Source of the DNA: Aurantiochytrium sp. KH105
Taxonomy: Eukaryota > Sar > Bigyra > Thraustochytrida > Thraustochytriidae
Reading direction: 5' to 3'
Assembly: GCA_003116975.1 (NCBI GenBank)
Contig: BGKB01000012.1
Span: 186,001 to 250,000, forward strand
Length of the DNA: 64,000 nt
Shown: positions 23,287 to 42,237 of the stretch, piece after piece
How positions within the stretch are numbered: the first letter of the stretch is position 1
How the letters are laid out: each line of letters begins with the position of its first letter
The notes under the pieces: model-generated
The model's input: the letters and a program-made list of their open reading frames with translations, nothing else
The model's database searches: none
What the model was told of the DNA's origin: nothing
Program-made: the position numbers and the translations under genes

Positions 23287-24720
23287 TTAGGATTTTGACG
23301 TAGCTTGCCGAGAGACATGTGCCACCTCGTAAATCGAGGAGGCAGTGGAAGACAAAGGGACCAGAAGACCAAAAGCCGTATGAATCAACAAAAATGCAAG
23401 AGTGTCGTCTCCTGAGCTTGCGGGGGATCCTGAATGGAAAGAGTTTACTGGACGGATATCCTCCAAATGACGGAGTTTGGCCTTTGTACATACATAGCAG
23501 ACGCTCACCACAAGCTCTGACAAGATGTATAGGTTTAGCTCTTGTGTACGAGAGTTGGGTGTTGGAATGGCCTTGGATACAAGTGCAAAGCTGAGACAAA
23601 AGTGTGCTGCAGATAGGGCCTTCAGCAAGGGTTTCCCGTGATCATGTAAGCTCTGTACCACAAACAGACCCAACACAGAGTATGTGATGACAAGAAAGGC
23701 TATTGCAAGCACACACTCAAGCACGACCAAAGGAGATGCTTTTCGTGTGGGTGTCCTATCCATTACTATGTGGATTGCGGCCGGAACAAATACTGCCATA
23801 CTTCCGAATATCAGGTCCAAAGAATCAACATCAGAAGCATCTCGAAAGAGAAGATTGAATGCGAAACAGGCGGTTGCGATCCACCGAAAGAGGTTGGCAG
23901 GCGACTTTGGGATAGAACAACCAATTCGAAAGAGACAAGCCAAGACAAAGAGACCTGTCAAAATCTCTTGCGCCGAAGACATGCGTTTCTCATCGGTCAG
24001 AAACGAGCAACAAGCAGAAGCGGCTGCAAGTTCGTTTGGATACTCCACTGGTACTTGCAGACGTTTTGCATCCATTATGAGAGTGCAAAGCGCGTAGAAA
24101 TTAAGCTCTTTCATTCCCTCAAAGGTCATGTGCTGGAAAAGTCGTAGCCTCCCTATGACACCGTTGTATGTTCTCCCGCTTGCAGCCTGTTCCTTCAGCA
24201 TCGCAAGACAGACTTTAAGGATGACAATTGCAAGGAAACACAGGAATAGTAGGCCGAGCAGTGAATTGTCTCCTGACGTCAAGTTGTTCGACATGGACAG
24301 TCCCGATTGAACCTCTTGCGAGGTTTGTCCTGCCAAAGACTCTGAGGCATGGTCAGTTTCTTTGACTGGAACCTGTTCAGAAGAAGAAGAGGGGGGTGAC
24401 GAAGGCGACAAGGATGATAATATCTTCTTGGAGCGAGCCTGCGGGGTTTTGGAACGAGTCCGCCGCTGACGGCCAAGTTTGGATCGTGGCGCAGAAGCCT
24501 CTTTGAGGGCAGCGTCGAAACTCTCGACTTGCGTCTTGAATCCATCGTAAATGAGGTCTTTGCGCGTCTCCCACGTGTTGTGTTCGTCGCCGTATTCTTC
24601 CCACTTGACGAGGTACTCTTGTACGGTCGCGCCTTTCCGCTTGACCTTGCGTCGGCTCAGAATTTTTTCAATGCGAATATCCTCGCTGTCGTCGTCGTCG
24701 CTCGATGACTCGTGCCTCAT
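23287..24720 (-). CDS. Chromodomain fused to a polytopic membrane domain, copy A
   Basis: A 477-residue protein. Residues of about 14-70 form a chromodomain: IRIEKILSRR, EYLVKWEEYGDEHNTWE, then a C-terminal helix. Of the three aromatic residues that cage methyl-lysine in HP1, the Trp and second Tyr (VKWEEY) are kept, while the first Tyr is Ile. A basic linker follows (RQRRTRSKTPQARSKK, a likely nuclear signal), then a Ser/Pro-rich spacer, then about seven or eight hydrophobic helices from residue 150 to the end (for example SLLGLLFLCFLAIVILKVCL and PLVVLECVLAIAFLVITYSV). The design suggests an inner nuclear membrane protein that holds chromatin, like lamin B receptor but built from other domains; this is inference. 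A homologue lies 556 bases upstream on the same strand. Confidence 0.9.
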   Translation of the reverse strand: MRHESSSDDDDSEDIRIEKILSRRKVKRKGATVQEYLVKWEEYGDEHNTWETRKDLIYDGFKTQVESFDAALKEASAPRSKLGRQRRTRSKTPQARSKKILSSLSPSSPPSSSSEQVPVKETDHASESLAGQTSQEVQSGLSMSNNLTSGDNSLLGLLFLCFLAIVILKVCLAMLKEQAASGRTYNGVIGRLRLFQHMTFEGMKELNFYALCTLIMDAKRLQVPVEYPNELAAASACCSFLTDEKRMSSAQEILTGLFVLACLFRIGCSIPKSPANLFRWIATACFAFNLLFRDASDVDSLDLIFGSMAVFVPAAIHIVMDRTPTRKASPLVVLECVLAIAFLVITYSVLGLFVVQSLHDHGKPLLKALSAAHFCLSFALVSKAIPTPNSRTQELNLYILSELVVSVCYVCTKAKLRHLEDIRPVNSFHSGSPASSGDDTLAFLLIHTAFGLLVPLSSTASSIYEVAHVSRQATSKS

Positions 24721-25276
24721 GGTTTGAGGCGAGGTTTTCCTCCAAGCGAAGCGAAGAAGGAAAGCAGGACGAGCGCGCGCCGCGAACAGAGACCCGCGTG
24801 AGACGGTCTGTCTTTTCTTTCGCGAGCAACGCGCAGTATCGTTGTGTGGCCAGGGTTAGCTTTTGGATTCCAAGTTTCTTCAAATCTTTGTTTGACCTAT
24901 TGTTTTTTGTTTTCCAAGACGCAGTGCAATAAAGCGATCGACAGCGGCATGGCGTTTTCACGTGCTAGAAGCACTTGGAGCCTGCAGACTTCACGCCATT
25001 TGGCGAATAAGATCATGACTTTAGACAAGAATCTTCTTTTCCGATAATGCTTTGACTCCTCTGAGCGTTTATTCTGGTGTATAAAAAGAAAGCAATGCAA
25101 AGGGCGTGCGTGTTGGCCTTGCGCTTGACGCATATCTTCTTGTTGAGATGATCACCCAGTCTTCCCAAGCCTAGGCCTAGGCCTCACAAAGGCATCATCA
25201 TGCATGGGTTCGTTTTTCTACCTGCCTGCCTGTTTTGCTTTCCTTTTTAGTGCGCTGTCACAGCTGAAGTAGCACC
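24721..25276. other. Spacer between the two chromodomain-membrane genes
   Basis: Upstream region of copy A and downstream region of copy B. It holds a (CTAGGC)n stretch at 25167-25185 (GCCTAGGCCTAGGCCT), which is palindromic. I see no gene or RNA. Confidence 0.5.
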
Positions 25277-26731
25277 CTAGGGACGGTGGAACATGATGGC
25301 AGAGCACATAAAAAGAACTCCATTGGTAAGCCCGAGAATGTTGTGCAGAATATCGAAATGAGGCAAGGTAACGTCATGCATCTGGCCATCAAAGCCTGCA
25401 ACCTGAAAGGTCTCTGGGCCCGGGATCTTGCCCGCATGCTTAGGATGAAGCTTTGCCAACGCCACCATCACATAGAGTACGCCGCAGACGGTTCCAGCGA
25501 GCTCAAGCGAGAGATAAAAAGGAGCACCGCCTCGAGACCCAACGAGGCTTGCGAGGAAACGCGCCAGTCCCCGGCAAACGTTGAAGAGGGCGATGGTGCC
25601 AGTTCCGTACAGGTACCTGGTATCGAAATCGGCATTTTCCTGTTCGTACTGCTTGTATACGATGGCAAGAATGGCCACAAAGCCCAGGACGGAAAGAACA
25701 TTTGCAATAGCATCCGCCATTTTCTTCTTGCGGAGAGCGTGCTCCTTGGTAGGCGTTCTTTCATCGCCAGAAAAGAGAGTCAGGAGGACGAAGAGCTGCC
25801 AGAGGAGGAGCGTAAAGATGTGCTTGGAGAATTCGCCGGGCTCGGTCATGTTACTCTCCGGAAACACCTTGGCTGTGGCCTCTACAAAAAAGGTCATGGC
25901 AATCCAGATCATCACGACAGCCGAGAGAAAAGCAAAGTCGGTCGAATGCCCGTAGCGAAGGGTGTAAAGAGCAGAGATGACCATTGGCGCTGGGTCCGTG
26001 AGAACTGACGCCATGTGCAGACGCTGCAAGTCGGTCACCTCATTGTTAGTCTTGCCATCAGGGGCAGTGTATTTGAGGTCCATGCGCAGAATCTTCCAGG
26101 TGACGCTGAGAAGCCACGAGCCAAGGAAAAGAAGGAGGAAGTGAGCCGCAAAGTTGCCCGAGGTCGCGTTGGCAATGTCCTGCTGCGAGAGGTTTGCCGC
26201 GAGTGCCGCCTGATCCTGAAGGGCCGAGGCGTCATCCGTGACATCCTCCTCACCTCCATCATCTTCATCGTCGTCCTCATCTTCGACGTTATCGTCGGCC
26301 TCTTGGACCGCTTCCTCCTCCTCCTCGTCTTCCTCCTCGGCCACATCTTCGTCGCCGTTCTCCTCTTCCTCTTCCTCCTCTTCTTCTCCTTCTTCTTCTT
26401 CGTCATCGTCGTTGCTCTTTGGGGGAGTGCGCTTGCTCGGCGTCTTGGAGCGACGACGCTTTGAGGAGGTAGACTTGGAGCTCGCGGCAGTGCTCAGACT
26501 GGCATCGTGTTCGTCAACCTCGCGGGTGTAGCCATCGGCGATCAGGTCTGTGCGCGTCTGCCAGGTGTTGTCCTCGCTGTCGTAACCTTCCCATTTAATG
26601 AGGTATTCGAACTCAACGCGGCCGCCGTCAAGCTGGAGCTCACGACGCGACAAGATGACCTCAATCTTGTAGTCCTCTTCTTCCTCGTCGCCGATGATCG
26701 CCTCCTCGGGGGCGAGCTTCTCGGCGGCCAT
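25277..26731 (-). CDS. Chromodomain fused to a polytopic membrane domain, copy B
   Basis: A 484-residue homologue of the neighbouring copy A. The chromodomain, at about residues 19-75, reads YKIEVILSRR, FEYLIKWEGYDSEDNTWQT and keeps all three aromatic cage residues. The linker has the same basic RSKTP motif (SSKRRRSKTPSKRTPPK) and then a very long acidic tract, about 70 residues mostly Glu and Asp. Seven or eight hydrophobic helices fill about 200-484 (FAAHFLLLFLGSWLLSVTWK; FLSAVVMIWIAMTFFVEA; IANVLSVLGFVAILAIVYK; LELAGTVCGVLYVMVALAK). A loop word, ERTPTK, matches DRTPTR of copy A at the same place between helices. The ATG at 26731 is used because the longer frame begins with GTG. Its likely place is the nuclear envelope or endoplasmic reticulum. 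Confidence 0.9.
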   Translation of the reverse strand: MAAEKLAPEEAIIGDEEEEDYKIEVILSRRELQLDGGRVEFEYLIKWEGYDSEDNTWQTRTDLIADGYTREVDEHDASLSTAASSKSTSSKRRRSKTPSKRTPPKSNDDDEEEEGEEEEEEEEENGDEDVAEEEDEEEEEAVQEADDNVEDEDDDEDDGGEEDVTDDASALQDQAALAANLSQQDIANATSGNFAAHFLLLFLGSWLLSVTWKILRMDLKYTAPDGKTNNEVTDLQRLHMASVLTDPAPMVISALYTLRYGHSTDFAFLSAVVMIWIAMTFFVEATAKVFPESNMTEPGEFSKHIFTLLLWQLFVLLTLFSGDERTPTKEHALRKKKMADAIANVLSVLGFVAILAIVYKQYEQENADFDTRYLYGTGTIALFNVCRGLARFLASLVGSRGGAPFYLSLELAGTVCGVLYVMVALAKLHPKHAGKIPGPETFQVAGFDGQMHDVTLPHFDILHNILGLTNGVLFMCSAIMFHRP

Positions 26732-27433: not shown

Positions 27434-28994
27434 TTACATGAGCAGACACTTTGAGTTGGAGCGCATGAGCTCGGCGTCAGATGCGTCGAGCGGGAGCTTG
27501 CCGCGGCGGTATCTATTGAGGATGTCAGCCTGAAGCGCCTTTTCGTCGACATGAAAGCTGAGCACGCGGGAAATATCCGTCATGTGGTCAAAGATGGCGA
27601 CGAAATCGTCGAACTCGGGCATGTCGCTGGGCAGGACCTTGACTTTGTGGACATCGGGAAGCTTGCGCTCTTCGTTGGCAGCAATCTCAGACTCAGACTC
27701 GGCGTAAACGACGCCAGATTCTGGGGTCCACACGGGCTCGTGTGTGGCAGTCCGAATGGTATCGAGATCGAGCGGCTTCCAGATGCCGTGTTCTGGGTCC
27801 AGCACTTCATTGGCCCCGCCTCCAAGGCATCCGAGACGCTCCTGCACGTCGCGCTCGAGGAGCTGCGAGACAAAGAGGGCGACGCGCTTGGGGAACCCCG
27901 GCGGGTAGCGAACAGGGGCGTGCAGAGTGGCCTCATTACGTGAGCTGTAGCCTGTGAAGCGGCGCGAGAATGGATTGAAGCCCGCAAAGAGTTCGTAGAC
28001 ACAAACGCCATAGCTCCACCAGTCGGCATCTTGGCCGTAGCGCTCACCGCTGAGGACCTGCGGGGACCAATAGCCCACAGTGCCGGCACGTCCTCGGATA
28101 AGCTTGCCGTTGCCGACATTGACGGCGAGGCCAAAGTCAGAGATGCGGCAGCGACCCCAAGCGTCGAGCAGAATGTTGCGCGGTTTGAGATCACGCATGA
28201 CGTATCCGAGGGAGTGGATGTGACCGAGGCCATGCGCAATTTCTGCCGCATAGACGAGCGCACGTTTGTGCGGGAGGGGTCCCTTTGACAAATGGAAGCG
28301 AAGATCGCCGGCAATGGCAAGAGGGAGCACAAAGTGAAAGGACTCCTTTGTCTGGTATGCGTAGAGGAGGCGCATGCAATAGGGAGAAGGCTTCTTAGCA
28401 AGAGCTTCCAGAACCCGTCGTTCGGACTTGACTTGAGAAAAGGTGCGACGGAATTTGACAAGCTTTTTAGGCATGACCTTCATGGCCATGGGGCGGCCAG
28501 TGTGCATGTGCATGCAGGCATACACACGGCCCGTCGCGCCGCGACCAAGCACGCGCAGCTTGGTAAAGTGCGCATCCTGTACAGGGCGCATTGCAAATGA
28601 CTTGATGCGGCAGTAGTTGCGCATGGAGGCCTTGTGTGCACAGAAGCGAAGGAACAAGGGTTCGCACACGGTGCTAATGAGAACCTCGATGGCTTCGTTG
28701 AGGCCGATTGTGCGCTCCGAGTGCAACTTGCGCAGCGAGACAATCTGCCGTCGGCGCTCCTGCGCGCGAAGATGATTGATGGAATTTGCCCTTCGTAGCT
28801 TGGTGACGGCGCTTGTGAGGGGAAGGTCGGAAAACGTGCTGGAGAATCTCCGGCGGTCTGTCTCGCCAACTCGCGACGTGCGCCTGCCGTTGGAGTCGGC
28901 GTCGTCGTCGGCACCGTTTTTCAGAGCGCGGGTAGCCTCAGTCCCTTCGTCTGCTTCGTGTCCGTCAGGGAATTCAGAGATGGAATAGGCATCA

Positions 28995-29026
<32 letters not shown>

Positions 29027-29968
29027 AATCTCGTGGTCGACTTCGCCATCGAGTTCCTCATCATCTTGATTCCCGTGGTCATTTTCGTCCTGTTCCAGCG
29101 GGTCGAGATGGTCAGGAAGGCCGCCAAAAGCCTCCTCACGCGAAGCTGGAAAATCGATGGAGCCGACGCTGCCAGGCAAGCGGCGCACGCGCAAAAGCGA
29201 ATGAAACTCGTCGTCTGGATGATCGACGATGGTGCTCGCCTTTTTCAAGAGCTCGGGGACGGGAAATTCACTGCGTGATGCGTTTTCGTCGTTGGCATCG
29301 ATGAGTTCATCTTCATCATCTTTGGTGGCCCGATCTGGTCCAGACTCTGAATCCTTATCTTCGTCGCTGGTGCTCGCGGTTGCAGTGGCATCGCCCGTGT
29401 CGTGCGCCATGGCCTCGTCAAGTACAGAGGCGAGAGTTTTTTGCACGGCAGGGTCGAATCCATGGGCAGAAAGACCACGTAGAACGGGTTCGAGAATGTC
29501 GAGATCGTAGTGACGAATGAGGAGCACGACGATGCTGCGAGAGACGGAGTTAGAAGGATCTGCGCGTTTTCGCGCGTTGAACGCGTTGACAAACTTGAGA
29601 AAGGTGGCTTCGTGCTGATCGGGGAGTCCGTGGATGGAGGAATCGTCGGAGAAGCTCGATACCGAGGTGGTGTCATCCAGTGTATCATCGATGAGTCCAG
29701 CGGAGTCTGTGGCTCTAGAGAGGGGTGTACCGCGTTGTTCTTCGGCGGCATGTGCGAGCTTGTATTCGAGATCAGCGAATTTGCGGAGAAACCATACGCC
29801 AATGGGCTCCTTGATGAGGGTGTGCAGGTCCACGTCGGCCATGCCCGTGAGTTTGCGTGAGGACAAGGTCCGCGGGAGCTCGGGAATGCGGCGGATCGGG
29901 CGCCGCTTCAGGTCCAGCATGGCCTCCTTGTACTTGGCCTCATGGAGGATGGTGGAGAGGTCGTCCAT
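27434..29968 (-). CDS. GRK: G-protein-coupled receptor kinase-like protein with CaaX box
   Basis: An 844-residue kinase with GRK architecture. It starts MDDLSTILHEAKYKEAMLDL, like MADLEAVLADVSYLMAME of GRK2. RGS-homology helices occupy about 48-190, then an acidic, Ser-rich insertion of about 230 residues, then the final RGS helices at about 423-462 (EPLFLRFCAHKASMRNYCRI). The AGC kinase spans 468-735: GRGATGRVY, AMKVMPKK (ATP lysine), VMRDLKPRN, ISDFGLAV, GTVGYWSPQVL, ERLGCLGGGANEV. The catalytic Asp, Asn and DFG are intact; the APE motif is SPQ. The protein ends CLLM, a prenylation CaaX box like those of GRK1 and GRK7. It should phosphorylate activated receptors at the membrane. The ATG at 29968 was chosen by alignment; the frame continues 46 codons further up without family similarity. 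Confidence 0.9.
28986..29028. repeat. (CGT)n trinucleotide repeat encoding poly-Asp
   Basis: A coding microsatellite within the acidic insertion of the GRK-like gene, giving 12 Asp residues in a row on the minus strand. Confidence 0.9.
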
Positions 29969-39709: not shown

Positions 39710-40501
39710 ATGACGCTCATGGCTGTTTCGGCAGCAGCCAGGGCTTGCGCAAAACGAGGCGCCTCCCTTCAAGGCGTACGCGCGTTTCATGGTGCGGCTG
39801 GTCTGCAAAATACGCACACGGAAAAGTGGACCAACATGTGGACCGAGAAGTTTCAAGAGACGCAGCCCTTTTGGCACATCGACGCGGTCAACAAGCGTCT
39901 CCTGCAATTCAAAGACGAGTTCATCCAACACGGCGCTAGACACAGCTTCCTCGTGCCTCTCTGTGGCAAATCGCTCGACCTGATCTGGCTCTCTCAGTTT
40001 GGCTTTGTTGCCGGCGTTGAAATCTCCCAGGATGCCATCGATCAGTTTCGTGCAGAGAATCGCCTTGAGTGGGATGCCACCGCGCTTGAGCAAAGCGACA
40101 AAACACTCTTCCGCGCGACCGTACCAAGCACGGCAAATGAGGTCGCAATTGCCAAGATGGACTTTTTCAATCTCCCGCCCGGCTGGAGCGATATCGGAGC
40201 CTCCTCAAGACGGCGCAAATTTGACCGCGCATGGGATCGCGCGGCCCTTGTGGCCATTGATCCACCCATGCGATCCGAGTACGTCGACGCTTTTGTTCAA
40301 CAGCTTTCCAACGATGCTGTTGTGCTGCTCAGCTCCTTCGTGTACCCCGAAGGTGCACATGCGGGGCCGCCGTTTTGCGTTCCAGAGACCGAGGTCCGCG
40401 CTCTCTATGAGCCATACTTTCACGTCGACCTTCTCATGCAGCGCCCAATTCCCATGGATCAGACAGAAGAACTCGTTTTTCTCATGAAGCGTAAACGTTG
40501 A
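39710..40501 (+). CDS. TPMT-family S-methyltransferase, copy 1 (mitochondrial-type N-terminus)
   Basis: A 263-residue SAM-dependent methyltransferase of the thiopurine methyltransferase family, which methylates sulfur or halide compounds. Family signs are KWTNMWTEKFQETQPFWHID, the SAM loop VPLCGKSLDLIWL, GVEISQDAIDQF, the strand MDFFNLPPGW, and WDRAALVAIDPPMRSEYVD. The first 35 residues contain several Arg or Lys and no acidic residue (MAVSAAARACAKRGASLQGV), typical of a mitochondrial presequence. The physiological substrate cannot be read from sequence; candidates are thiols, hydrogen sulfide or halides. A paralogue lies 899 bases downstream in the same direction, sharing VEISQDAIDQF and the C-terminal TEELVFLMKRK word for word, so the pair arose by tandem duplication. 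Confidence 0.92.
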   Translation: MTLMAVSAAARACAKRGASLQGVRAFHGAAGLQNTHTEKWTNMWTEKFQETQPFWHIDAVNKRLLQFKDEFIQHGARHSFLVPLCGKSLDLIWLSQFGFVAGVEISQDAIDQFRAENRLEWDATALEQSDKTLFRATVPSTANEVAIAKMDFFNLPPGWSDIGASSRRRKFDRAWDRAALVAIDPPMRSEYVDAFVQQLSNDAVVLLSSFVYPEGAHAGPPFCVPETEVRALYEPYFHVDLLMQRPIPMDQTEELVFLMKRKR

Positions 40502-41400: not shown

Positions 41401-42237
41401 ATGCTTCAAGGCTTGATCTCAGCTCCGCTTCGCCGCGTCTTTGGACTCGGCGCGGCCGCGACTCTTCTCTCGCTCGGCGCGACTGCTGCGGGAGCGTCTG
41501 CCGGCAATGCCATGTGCCAAGGCGAAGATGGCGAGGCCACCGAGCCAGAGCATCTGGAGATGTGGCTCAAGCGTTGGACGACACAATACAAGACAGAAAA
41601 ACCCGGATTCCACATGGAGGCTGTCAATCCCAATCTGATCAAATACCGGGAACAGTTTATCACGGGCGAAGGCCCGCGCAACTTTTTCGTTCCACTTTGT
41701 GGCAAGACCCTGGACCTCTTGTGGCTGGCTCAGTTTGGTTTTGTGGGCGGAGTCGAGATTTCGCAAGATGCCATCGACCAGTTTGCCGAGGCAAATGGGC
41801 TGTCCTGGGATAAGGAGGCCATCGAAAAATCAAACAAGGCCCTTTTTCGCGCCACTGCTCCGGGCTCTGGGAACCAGCTCGCCATCGGCAAGATGGACTT
41901 TTTTAATCTGCCCGACGGCTGGAGCGATCTCGGCGAGTCCCAAAAGCACAAGTTCAACTTTGTCTGGGATCGTGCCTCTCTTGTCGCCATCAACCCGCCC
42001 ATGCGTCAGGATTACGTCAAGGCCATTGTCGAGCAGTGCACTCCGGACGCCAAGGTTTTGCTTTGTACCTTTGACTACGCTCCTGGCGTCCGCGAAGGAC
42101 CTCCGCATGCCGTATCGGAGGCTACCGTGCGCGAGCTTTTCGAGCCCTTCTTCGTCGTCGATCTTCTCGACCGTCACACGACACCCATGCCGGAAACCGA
42201 AGAGCTCGTTTTCCTCATGAAGCGCAAATCCGAATAA
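41401..42237 (+). CDS. TPMT-family S-methyltransferase, copy 2 (hydrophobic N-terminus)
   Basis: A 278-residue paralogue of the preceding gene, with the same SAM-binding and family motifs (FFVPLCGKTLDLLWLAQFGF, GGVEISQDAIDQF, KMDFFNLPDGWSDLGE, WDRASLVAINPPMRQDYV). The N-terminus differs: a short basic start (MLQGLISAPLRRVF) is followed by a hydrophobic Ala/Gly/Leu segment (GLGAAATLLSLGATAAGASA). That fits a bipartite signal to the mitochondrial intermembrane space or a signal anchor, so the two copies probably serve different compartments. The methylated substrate is unknown. Conservation between the copies is high through the catalytic core and lost in the N-terminal 45 residues, which supports duplication followed by change of targeting. 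Confidence 0.92.
   Translation: MLQGLISAPLRRVFGLGAAATLLSLGATAAGASAGNAMCQGEDGEATEPEHLEMWLKRWTTQYKTEKPGFHMEAVNPNLIKYREQFITGEGPRNFFVPLCGKTLDLLWLAQFGFVGGVEISQDAIDQFAEANGLSWDKEAIEKSNKALFRATAPGSGNQLAIGKMDFFNLPDGWSDLGESQKHKFNFVWDRASLVAINPPMRQDYVKAIVEQCTPDAKVLLCTFDYAPGVREGPPHAVSEATVRELFEPFFVVDLLDRHTTPMPETEELVFLMKRKSE

What the first reader, a model, noticed from the sequence alone, without database searches (positions are those of the whole stretch)
23287..26731. Tandem pair of chromodomain proteins fused to polytopic membrane domains
Seen in the sequence: two neighbouring minus-strand genes each encode a chromodomain, a basic RSKTP-containing linker and seven or eight hydrophobic helices. They are homologous along the whole length (the same ERTPT/DRTPT loop word between helices). 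Known: chromodomains read methylated histone tails, and lamin B receptor joins a Tudor domain to a multispan membrane region at the inner nuclear membrane. I know of no described family that joins a chromodomain to a polytopic membrane domain. Inference: a convergent nuclear-envelope chromatin tether, peculiar to this lineage.
Basis: partly seen in the sequence, partly recalled or inferred. Interest (0 to 1): 0.88.

Follow-up and report, generated by a model that had tools for sequence, protein, structure and literature searches.

The report
Chromodomain joined to eight-span membrane protein
A marine thraustochytrid protist carries two neighbouring genes whose proteins each join a histone-reading type of domain (a chromodomain) to a membrane-embedded helix bundle; one of the two keeps the residues needed to hold marked chromatin against a membrane, perhaps the nuclear envelope, although this has not been tested in cells.

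Summary
Gene A (25280-26731, minus, 484 aa) and gene B (23290-24720, minus, 477 aa) each encode, in one uninterrupted frame, an HP1-class chromodomain, a basic RSKTP linker and a hydrophobic half of about eight helices. The same fused protein is a deposited Hondaea fermentalgiana protein (P0001), and both genes recur on the apparent second haplotype. A/B homology is strong in the chromodomain and linker, weak in the membrane halves. A keeps the full methyl-lysine cage (Y21, W47, Y50), and its membrane half has 19 silent and no replacement changes between haplotypes. B lacks the first cage aromatic on both alleles and the third on one, and evolves faster. The genome's other chromodomain matches lie in frames with an SNF2 domain (CHD type) or in eEF3-like frames; no chromoshadow or Pre-SET match was found, though controls for these were silent. 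Best reading: A tethers methylated chromatin to the inner nuclear membrane, laid out like lamin B receptor but from unrelated modules; B is a diverged paralogue that probably no longer reads methyl-lysine. Localisation, ligand, membrane orientation, transcript and wider distribution are untested. No known family was found for the membrane half.

The parts
25280..26731 (-). Gene A coding frame, 484 aa (stop at 25277-25279)
   Evidence: 99% identical to the 485-aa H. fermentalgiana protein P0001 and to the copy on C22
26540..26671 (-). Gene A chromodomain (Pfam match, residues 21-64), cage Y21, W47, Y50 all present
   Evidence: Pfam PF00385 1.8e-8; best solved relatives Swi6, CBX1, CDYL; AF2 pLDDT block means 72-84 for residues 21-80
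26417..26464 (-). Gene A basic linker with RSKTP and two [ST]-P-x-[KR] sites (TPSK, TPPK), residues 90-105
   Evidence: sequence
26234..26413 (-). Gene A acidic linker (about residues 107-166)
   Evidence: sequence
25280..26161 (-). Gene A membrane half, residues 191-484, eight hydrophobic segments
   Evidence: 19 silent and 0 replacement codon changes between haplotypes; no Pfam match at E<=10
25748..25762 (-). Gene A ERTPT loop word between segments 4 and 5, in the loop with the most K/R (6, with 4 D/E)
23290..24720 (-). Gene B coding frame, 477 aa (stop at 23287-23289)
   Evidence: copy on C22 91% identical
24514..24678 (-). Gene B chromodomain (residues 15-69); first cage position is I15 (V on the other haplotype), third is Y43 (H on the other haplotype)
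   Evidence: Pfam PF00385 3e-13
24424..24471 (-). Gene B basic linker with RSKTP (residues 84-99)
   Evidence: sequence
23290..24270 (-). Gene B membrane half, residues 151-477, eight hydrophobic windows (a weaker ninth was assumed in the loop table)
   Evidence: 13 silent and 26 replacement codon changes between haplotypes
23746..23760 (-). Gene B DRTPT loop word

Best explanation
Gene A encodes a chromatin tether of the inner nuclear membrane. The eight-span half inserts through the ER and diffuses to the inner nuclear membrane. The N-terminal chromodomain faces the nucleoplasm and grips a methylated ARKS site of histone H3 (K9 or K27) with its three-aromatic cage. The basic linker adds DNA/nucleosome contact and nuclear retention, and its TP sites could let a cell-cycle kinase release it at division. 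Gene B is an old tandem copy with the same build whose cage is lost; it probably keeps a membrane or partner role without reading methyl-lysine. Shown by computation: one-frame fusion, chromodomain class, cage residues, hydrophobic segments, selection pattern, H3 tail. Inferred: membrane identity, orientation, ligand, regulation.
For: Open single frame on two haplotypes and in a deposited Hondaea protein of 485 aa; none of six common donor hexamers in either junction. HP1-class chromodomain with the residues matching Y24, W45, Y48 of fly HP1, named as critical in PMC3532415 (passages). Of nine histone loci read, five printed H3-like frames; three of these are canonical and keep ARKS at K9 and K27. 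A's membrane half has 19 silent: 0 replacement changes, P about 1e-12 under neutrality, so it is a maintained protein domain. The genome has SUN-domain matches. No chromoshadow match (silent controls); apart from A and B, the other 16 of 20 Chromo matches lie in 7 frames that also carry SNF2 (13 matches) and in 3 eEF3-like frames (3 matches).
Against: No localisation, binding or transcript data. No Pre-SET match and no preSET_CXC match, so no standard H3K9 or H3K27 writer was identified; controls for those searches were silent, so absence is not shown. Membrane orientation is not settled: the loop with most K/R (6) would lie on the N-terminal side, but summed over loops that side has 9 K/R in 38 residues against 12 in 101 on the other, and gene B's loops show no clear bias (counts; positive-inside rule recalled). 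The membrane half has no recognisable family and no confident model (pLDDT about 38 and 47). A's chromodomain has 3 replacement and 1 silent change (dN 0.021, dS 0.027), so this small sample shows no strong constraint on it; with the linker 7 and 4. Two of five H3-like frames lack the ARKS contexts. The layout also fits an ER-wide protein.
Confidence: 0.45

Rival explanations
1. The membrane half is the working part (an enzyme, channel or transporter of the ER/nuclear envelope) and the chromodomain places or regulates it, as lamin B receptor combines a sterol reductase with a chromatin-binding end.
For: The membrane half of A is far more constrained than its chromodomain and linker (19:0 against 4:7 silent:replacement, Fisher 1.6e-4). 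LBR shows that such bifunctional proteins exist (PMC5617974, passages).
Against: No enzyme or transporter family passes a cut-off; the sterol-reductase matches in the genome lie at other places. The best hint, cation diffusion facilitator at E 0.041 and 13 bits against a cut-off of 82, is far below threshold. B's membrane half, of the same build, is only weakly constrained (dN 0.039, dS 0.060).
Confidence: 0.25
2. The chromodomain is a plain protein-protein module at the cytosolic ER face and reads no histone, as the cpSRP43 chromodomains bind non-histone basic tails.
For: B lacks the first cage aromatic, whose loss abolishes histone binding in SUV39H1 and, as cited there, CDYL (PMC3532415, passages). 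cpSRP43 chromodomains bind positively charged tails of cpSRP54 and Alb3 (PMC4660199, passages). No Pre-SET or preSET_CXC match (silent controls) and none in 9 SET frames scanned.
Against: A keeps all three aromatics on both haplotypes and in Hondaea, in an HP1-like acidic context with a basic linker.
Confidence: 0.2
3. The fusion is an annotation illusion: a short intron or alternative start makes two products.
For: No RNA evidence was available. Weak GT...AG pairs 40-400 bases apart exist in the junctions (224 in A, 52 in B), as any such stretch would have.
Against: Frame open throughout in 4 of 4 allele copies, with length differences between alleles in whole codons; none of six donor hexamers tested at the junctions; the deposited Hondaea protein is the same fusion, 485 aa, though that too may be a gene prediction.
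Confidence: 0.05

Closest known systems
Lamin B receptor (LBR)
   Same: N-terminal Tudor histone reader, basic linker with phosphorylation sites, then eight membrane spans; tether at the inner nuclear membrane (PMC5617974, start of abstract and passages).
   Different: Tudor rather than chromodomain, RS rather than RSKTP linker, and a sterol-reductase membrane half; A and B do not match that family.
C. elegans CEC-4
   Different: Its C-terminal part is said there to lack homology to characterised chromatin-binding proteins, and the word 'transmembrane' does not occur in that paper's text; A and B carry their own predicted spans.
HP1/Swi6 family
   Same: Chromodomain class, acidic stretch before it, complete cage in A.
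   Different: No chromoshadow domain in A or B; a membrane half instead.
cpSRP43/Alb3
   Same: Chromodomains working at a membrane (PMC4660199, passages).
   Different: A soluble chloroplast protein with a cage modified for arginine; not a fusion to membrane spans.

Membership tests
Chromodomain (PF00385) | profile match above the curated score | tested here: met
   34.6 and 49.9 bits against 25.1
Methyl-lysine-reading chromodomain | three cage aromatics, gene A | tested here: met
   Y21, W47, Y50 on both haplotypes and in P0001
Methyl-lysine-reading chromodomain | three cage aromatics, gene B | tested here: not met
   I or V in place of the first; Y or H at the third
Methyl-lysine-reading chromodomain | binds methylated H3 | not testable with these tools
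   needs a peptide-binding assay
HP1 | chromoshadow domain (PF01393) | tested here: not met
   no match in A or B at E<=1; no match in the genome (silent controls)
LBR / sterol reductase | ERG4_ERG24 membrane half (PF01222) | tested here: not met
   no match at E<=10, while the family is found at other places in the genome
LBR | Tudor domain | tested here: not met
   chromodomain instead; no Tudor match at E<=1
Inner-nuclear-membrane protein | localisation to the inner nuclear membrane | not testable with these tools
   needs tagging
Inner-nuclear-membrane protein | reader domain on the nucleo/cytoplasmic side | tested here: inconclusive
   loop charges are mixed in A and show no clear bias in B
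Polytopic membrane protein | several membrane-length hydrophobic helices | tested here: met
   gene A five windows >=1.6, 0 of 500 shuffles; gene B five, 30 of 500; helices in low-confidence models of A only; B was not modelled

The most novel reading that the evidence does not exclude
In a lineage without HP1, a membrane-embedded chromodomain protein is the main non-remodeller reader of methylated H3, so heterochromatin is read directly at the nuclear membrane. Its tandem copy has lost the reading cage and tunes the anchor. This would be an independent evolution of the LBR/CEC-4 principle from different parts.
Probability: 0.3. Interest if true: 0.8.

Novelty: new variant of a known kind. Interest (0 to 1): 0.6.

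Why it matters
Direct chromatin-to-membrane tethers are known mainly from animals and fungi (recalled). A chromodomain built into a polytopic membrane protein of a stramenopile would show that the principle evolved more than once from different modules. It also gives a natural pair, one copy with an intact reader cage and one without, to test what the cage contributes. Some thraustochytrids can be transformed (recalled), so the test may be practical.

Tried and rejected
Family of the membrane half: Pfam at E<=10 (none for A or B), NCBIfam (three matches, all far below cut-off), PDB profile (none), Foldseek on two low-confidence models (no match with E<=0.001; for the full model the first eleven rows are chromodomain structures), viral contigs with gene A (43 pattern stretches, none confirmed), prokaryote genomes with the membrane half of A (9 stretches, none confirmed), own genome with the membrane half of A (the two alleles and one match at E 4.5).

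Relatives elsewhere: three protein searches returned only P0001. All used gene A; one search scored only the 8000 candidates sharing most words (probably the acidic linker), one search had 4657 candidates and only 43. Gene B was never searched against the large protein set, so its presence in Hondaea is untested.

Writer of the mark: Pre-SET and preSET_CXC found nothing, but no control rang. Of 48 SET matches, I picked frames for 11 loci and scanned 9 (E<=0.001): SET in 8, Pre-SET in 0. Four were compared with the PDB: best matches KMT2A, KMT2C, ASH1L and, weakly (2.3e-6), EZH2; the second also matches H3K9 enzyme EHMT2 less well (3.8e-8).

Papers: searches (37 papers, 25 listed; 3; 4; 24, 10 listed; 32, 10 listed; 7, 6 listed; 1; 0; 3), 81 (3); I saw the listings and abstract starts. 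No listed title or abstract start describes a chromodomain fused to a polytopic membrane domain. Passages were read in PMC4859327, PMC5617974, PMC5788517, PMC3532415 and PMC4660199. Open-access papers only, so this is not proof that none exists.

Rejected: plastid role (thraustochytrids lack plastids, recalled); split genes.

My note misnumbers two residues of gene B (I15 and Y43 are right).

Full report
What is there. The window is part of a 76 Mb assembly that appears to hold two haplotypes (C12 and C22 align at 95.5% over 6.5 kb here). Gene A is 99% identical to Hondaea fermentalgiana protein FCC1311_004852 (P0001, 485 aa), so the organism is that thraustochytrid or a near relative (taxonomy). 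Gene A (484 aa) and gene B (477 aa) lie head to tail on the minus strand, about 560 bases apart. Each is one open frame from ATG to stop in both haplotypes.

Chromodomains. Both pass the Pfam cut-off, and the best solved relatives are HP1-class (Swi6 and CBX1 for A, CBX5 and CBX1 for B). An AlphaFold2 model of A gives a fairly confident chromodomain (pLDDT block means 72-84), for which Foldseek returns H3K9me3-bound Chp1 first (probability 1.00, but E 0.05). Fly HP1 uses Y24, W45 and Y48, and loss of the first aromatic abolishes binding in SUV39H1 and, as cited there, CDYL (PMC3532415, passages). A has all three (Y21, W47, Y50) in both haplotypes and in P0001. B has isoleucine or valine at the first position, and one allele has histidine at the third. 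A should therefore be able to read methyl-lysine; B should not.

Membrane halves. Each has eight 19-residue windows above 1.1 on the Kyte-Doolittle scale, five of them at 1.6 or more. For A, 1 and 0 of 500 shuffles reach these counts; for B 82 and 30 of 500 do, because its composition is hydrophobic throughout. Models of A show membrane-length helices, but at very low confidence (pLDDT about 38 and 47); B was not modelled. Orientation is open. In A the loop with most K/R (6, with 4 D/E, containing ERTPT) follows segment 4 and so lies on the chromodomain's side, and that side is denser in K/R (9 in 38 loop residues against 12 in 101), but the other side has more in total, and gene B shows no clear bias (counts). 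No family was found.

Homology of the pair. The first ~130 residues align at E 4e-21. The membrane halves are much weaker: ordinary alignment is not significant, hhalign gives E 0.035 and probability 1.4% over 34 columns, gap-tolerant alignment is reached by 3-4 of 1000 shuffles with two scorings and by 16 and 41 of 1000 with a third, and one ungapped 52-residue block by 1 of 300. With the shared layout and tandem position, a whole-gene duplication is the simplest reading, but an old one.

Selection. Between haplotypes A's membrane half has 19 silent and 0 replacement codon changes in 294 codons; B's has 13 and 26 in 327 (dN 0.039, dS 0.060; Fisher 4e-7). A's chromodomain has 1 silent and 3 replacement changes, its linker 3 and 4; none touches the cage. 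A's membrane half is thus strictly maintained, B's only weakly, and the sample is too small to show constraint on A's chromodomain. The pattern also argues that A's membrane half is a real translated domain in this frame. None of six donor hexamers tested lies in either junction, though weak GT...AG pairs do.

Genome context. Of 20 Chromo matches (17 above cut-off), 4 are A and B, 13 lie in seven frames that also carry an SNF2 domain (CHD type by inference), and 3 lie in frames that read as elongation factor 3 (ABC cassettes; identification recalled). No chromoshadow match and no Pre-SET or preSET_CXC match appeared; the controls for these three searches were silent, so absence is not shown. 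Of 28 histone matches nine loci were read and five printed H3-like frames: three canonical ones keep ARKS at K9 and K27, two diverged ones do not. SUN-domain matches and sterol-reductase matches at other places are present.

Mechanism. LBR is the nearest layout: Tudor reader, basic RS linker, eight spans, a CDK1 site just upstream of the RS region (PMC5617974, passages). CEC-4 is the nearest reader: an HP1-beta-like chromodomain without chromoshadow that anchors H3K9-methylated chromatin at the nuclear envelope, with tethering compromised when two conserved aromatics are ablated (PMC5788517, passages). Gene A combines the two principles in one chain. Its linker has two [ST]-P-x-[KR] sites and the ERTPT loop a third, a possible release switch (inference; CDK consensus recalled). 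I put the inner-nuclear-membrane tether at 0.45 (0.5 before the loop charges were recounted), an active membrane half with a chromatin-targeting end at 0.25, and a non-histone adaptor at 0.2.

Limits. No expression, localisation or binding evidence. Relatives beyond Hondaea were sought only with a word-based search using gene A, so lineage restriction is not shown.

Noticed in passing
L070 and L075 (own genome, C67 and C145): H3-like frames with a diverged tail (starts MARKKQTVYKAVGAKAPRM) and a diverged core, lacking the ARKS contexts; a possible unusual H3 variant.
   Followed up: no
window 39710-40498 and 41401-42234, plus strand: Two neighbouring thiopurine S-methyltransferase-family genes, another tandem pair in this window.
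   Followed up: no
window 23290-24720 against L017:1558-2982: Gene B differs by about 9% in protein between haplotypes while neighbouring gene A differs by about 1%, with similar silent divergence.
   Followed up: partly
window 27437-29968, minus strand: Protein kinase gene directly upstream of gene A on the same strand, with acidic stretches before the kinase domain.
   Followed up: no
own genome, SET matches: 48 SET-domain matches but no Pre-SET match (silent controls); if confirmed, H3K9 methylation would need a non-standard writer in this organism.
   Followed up: partly
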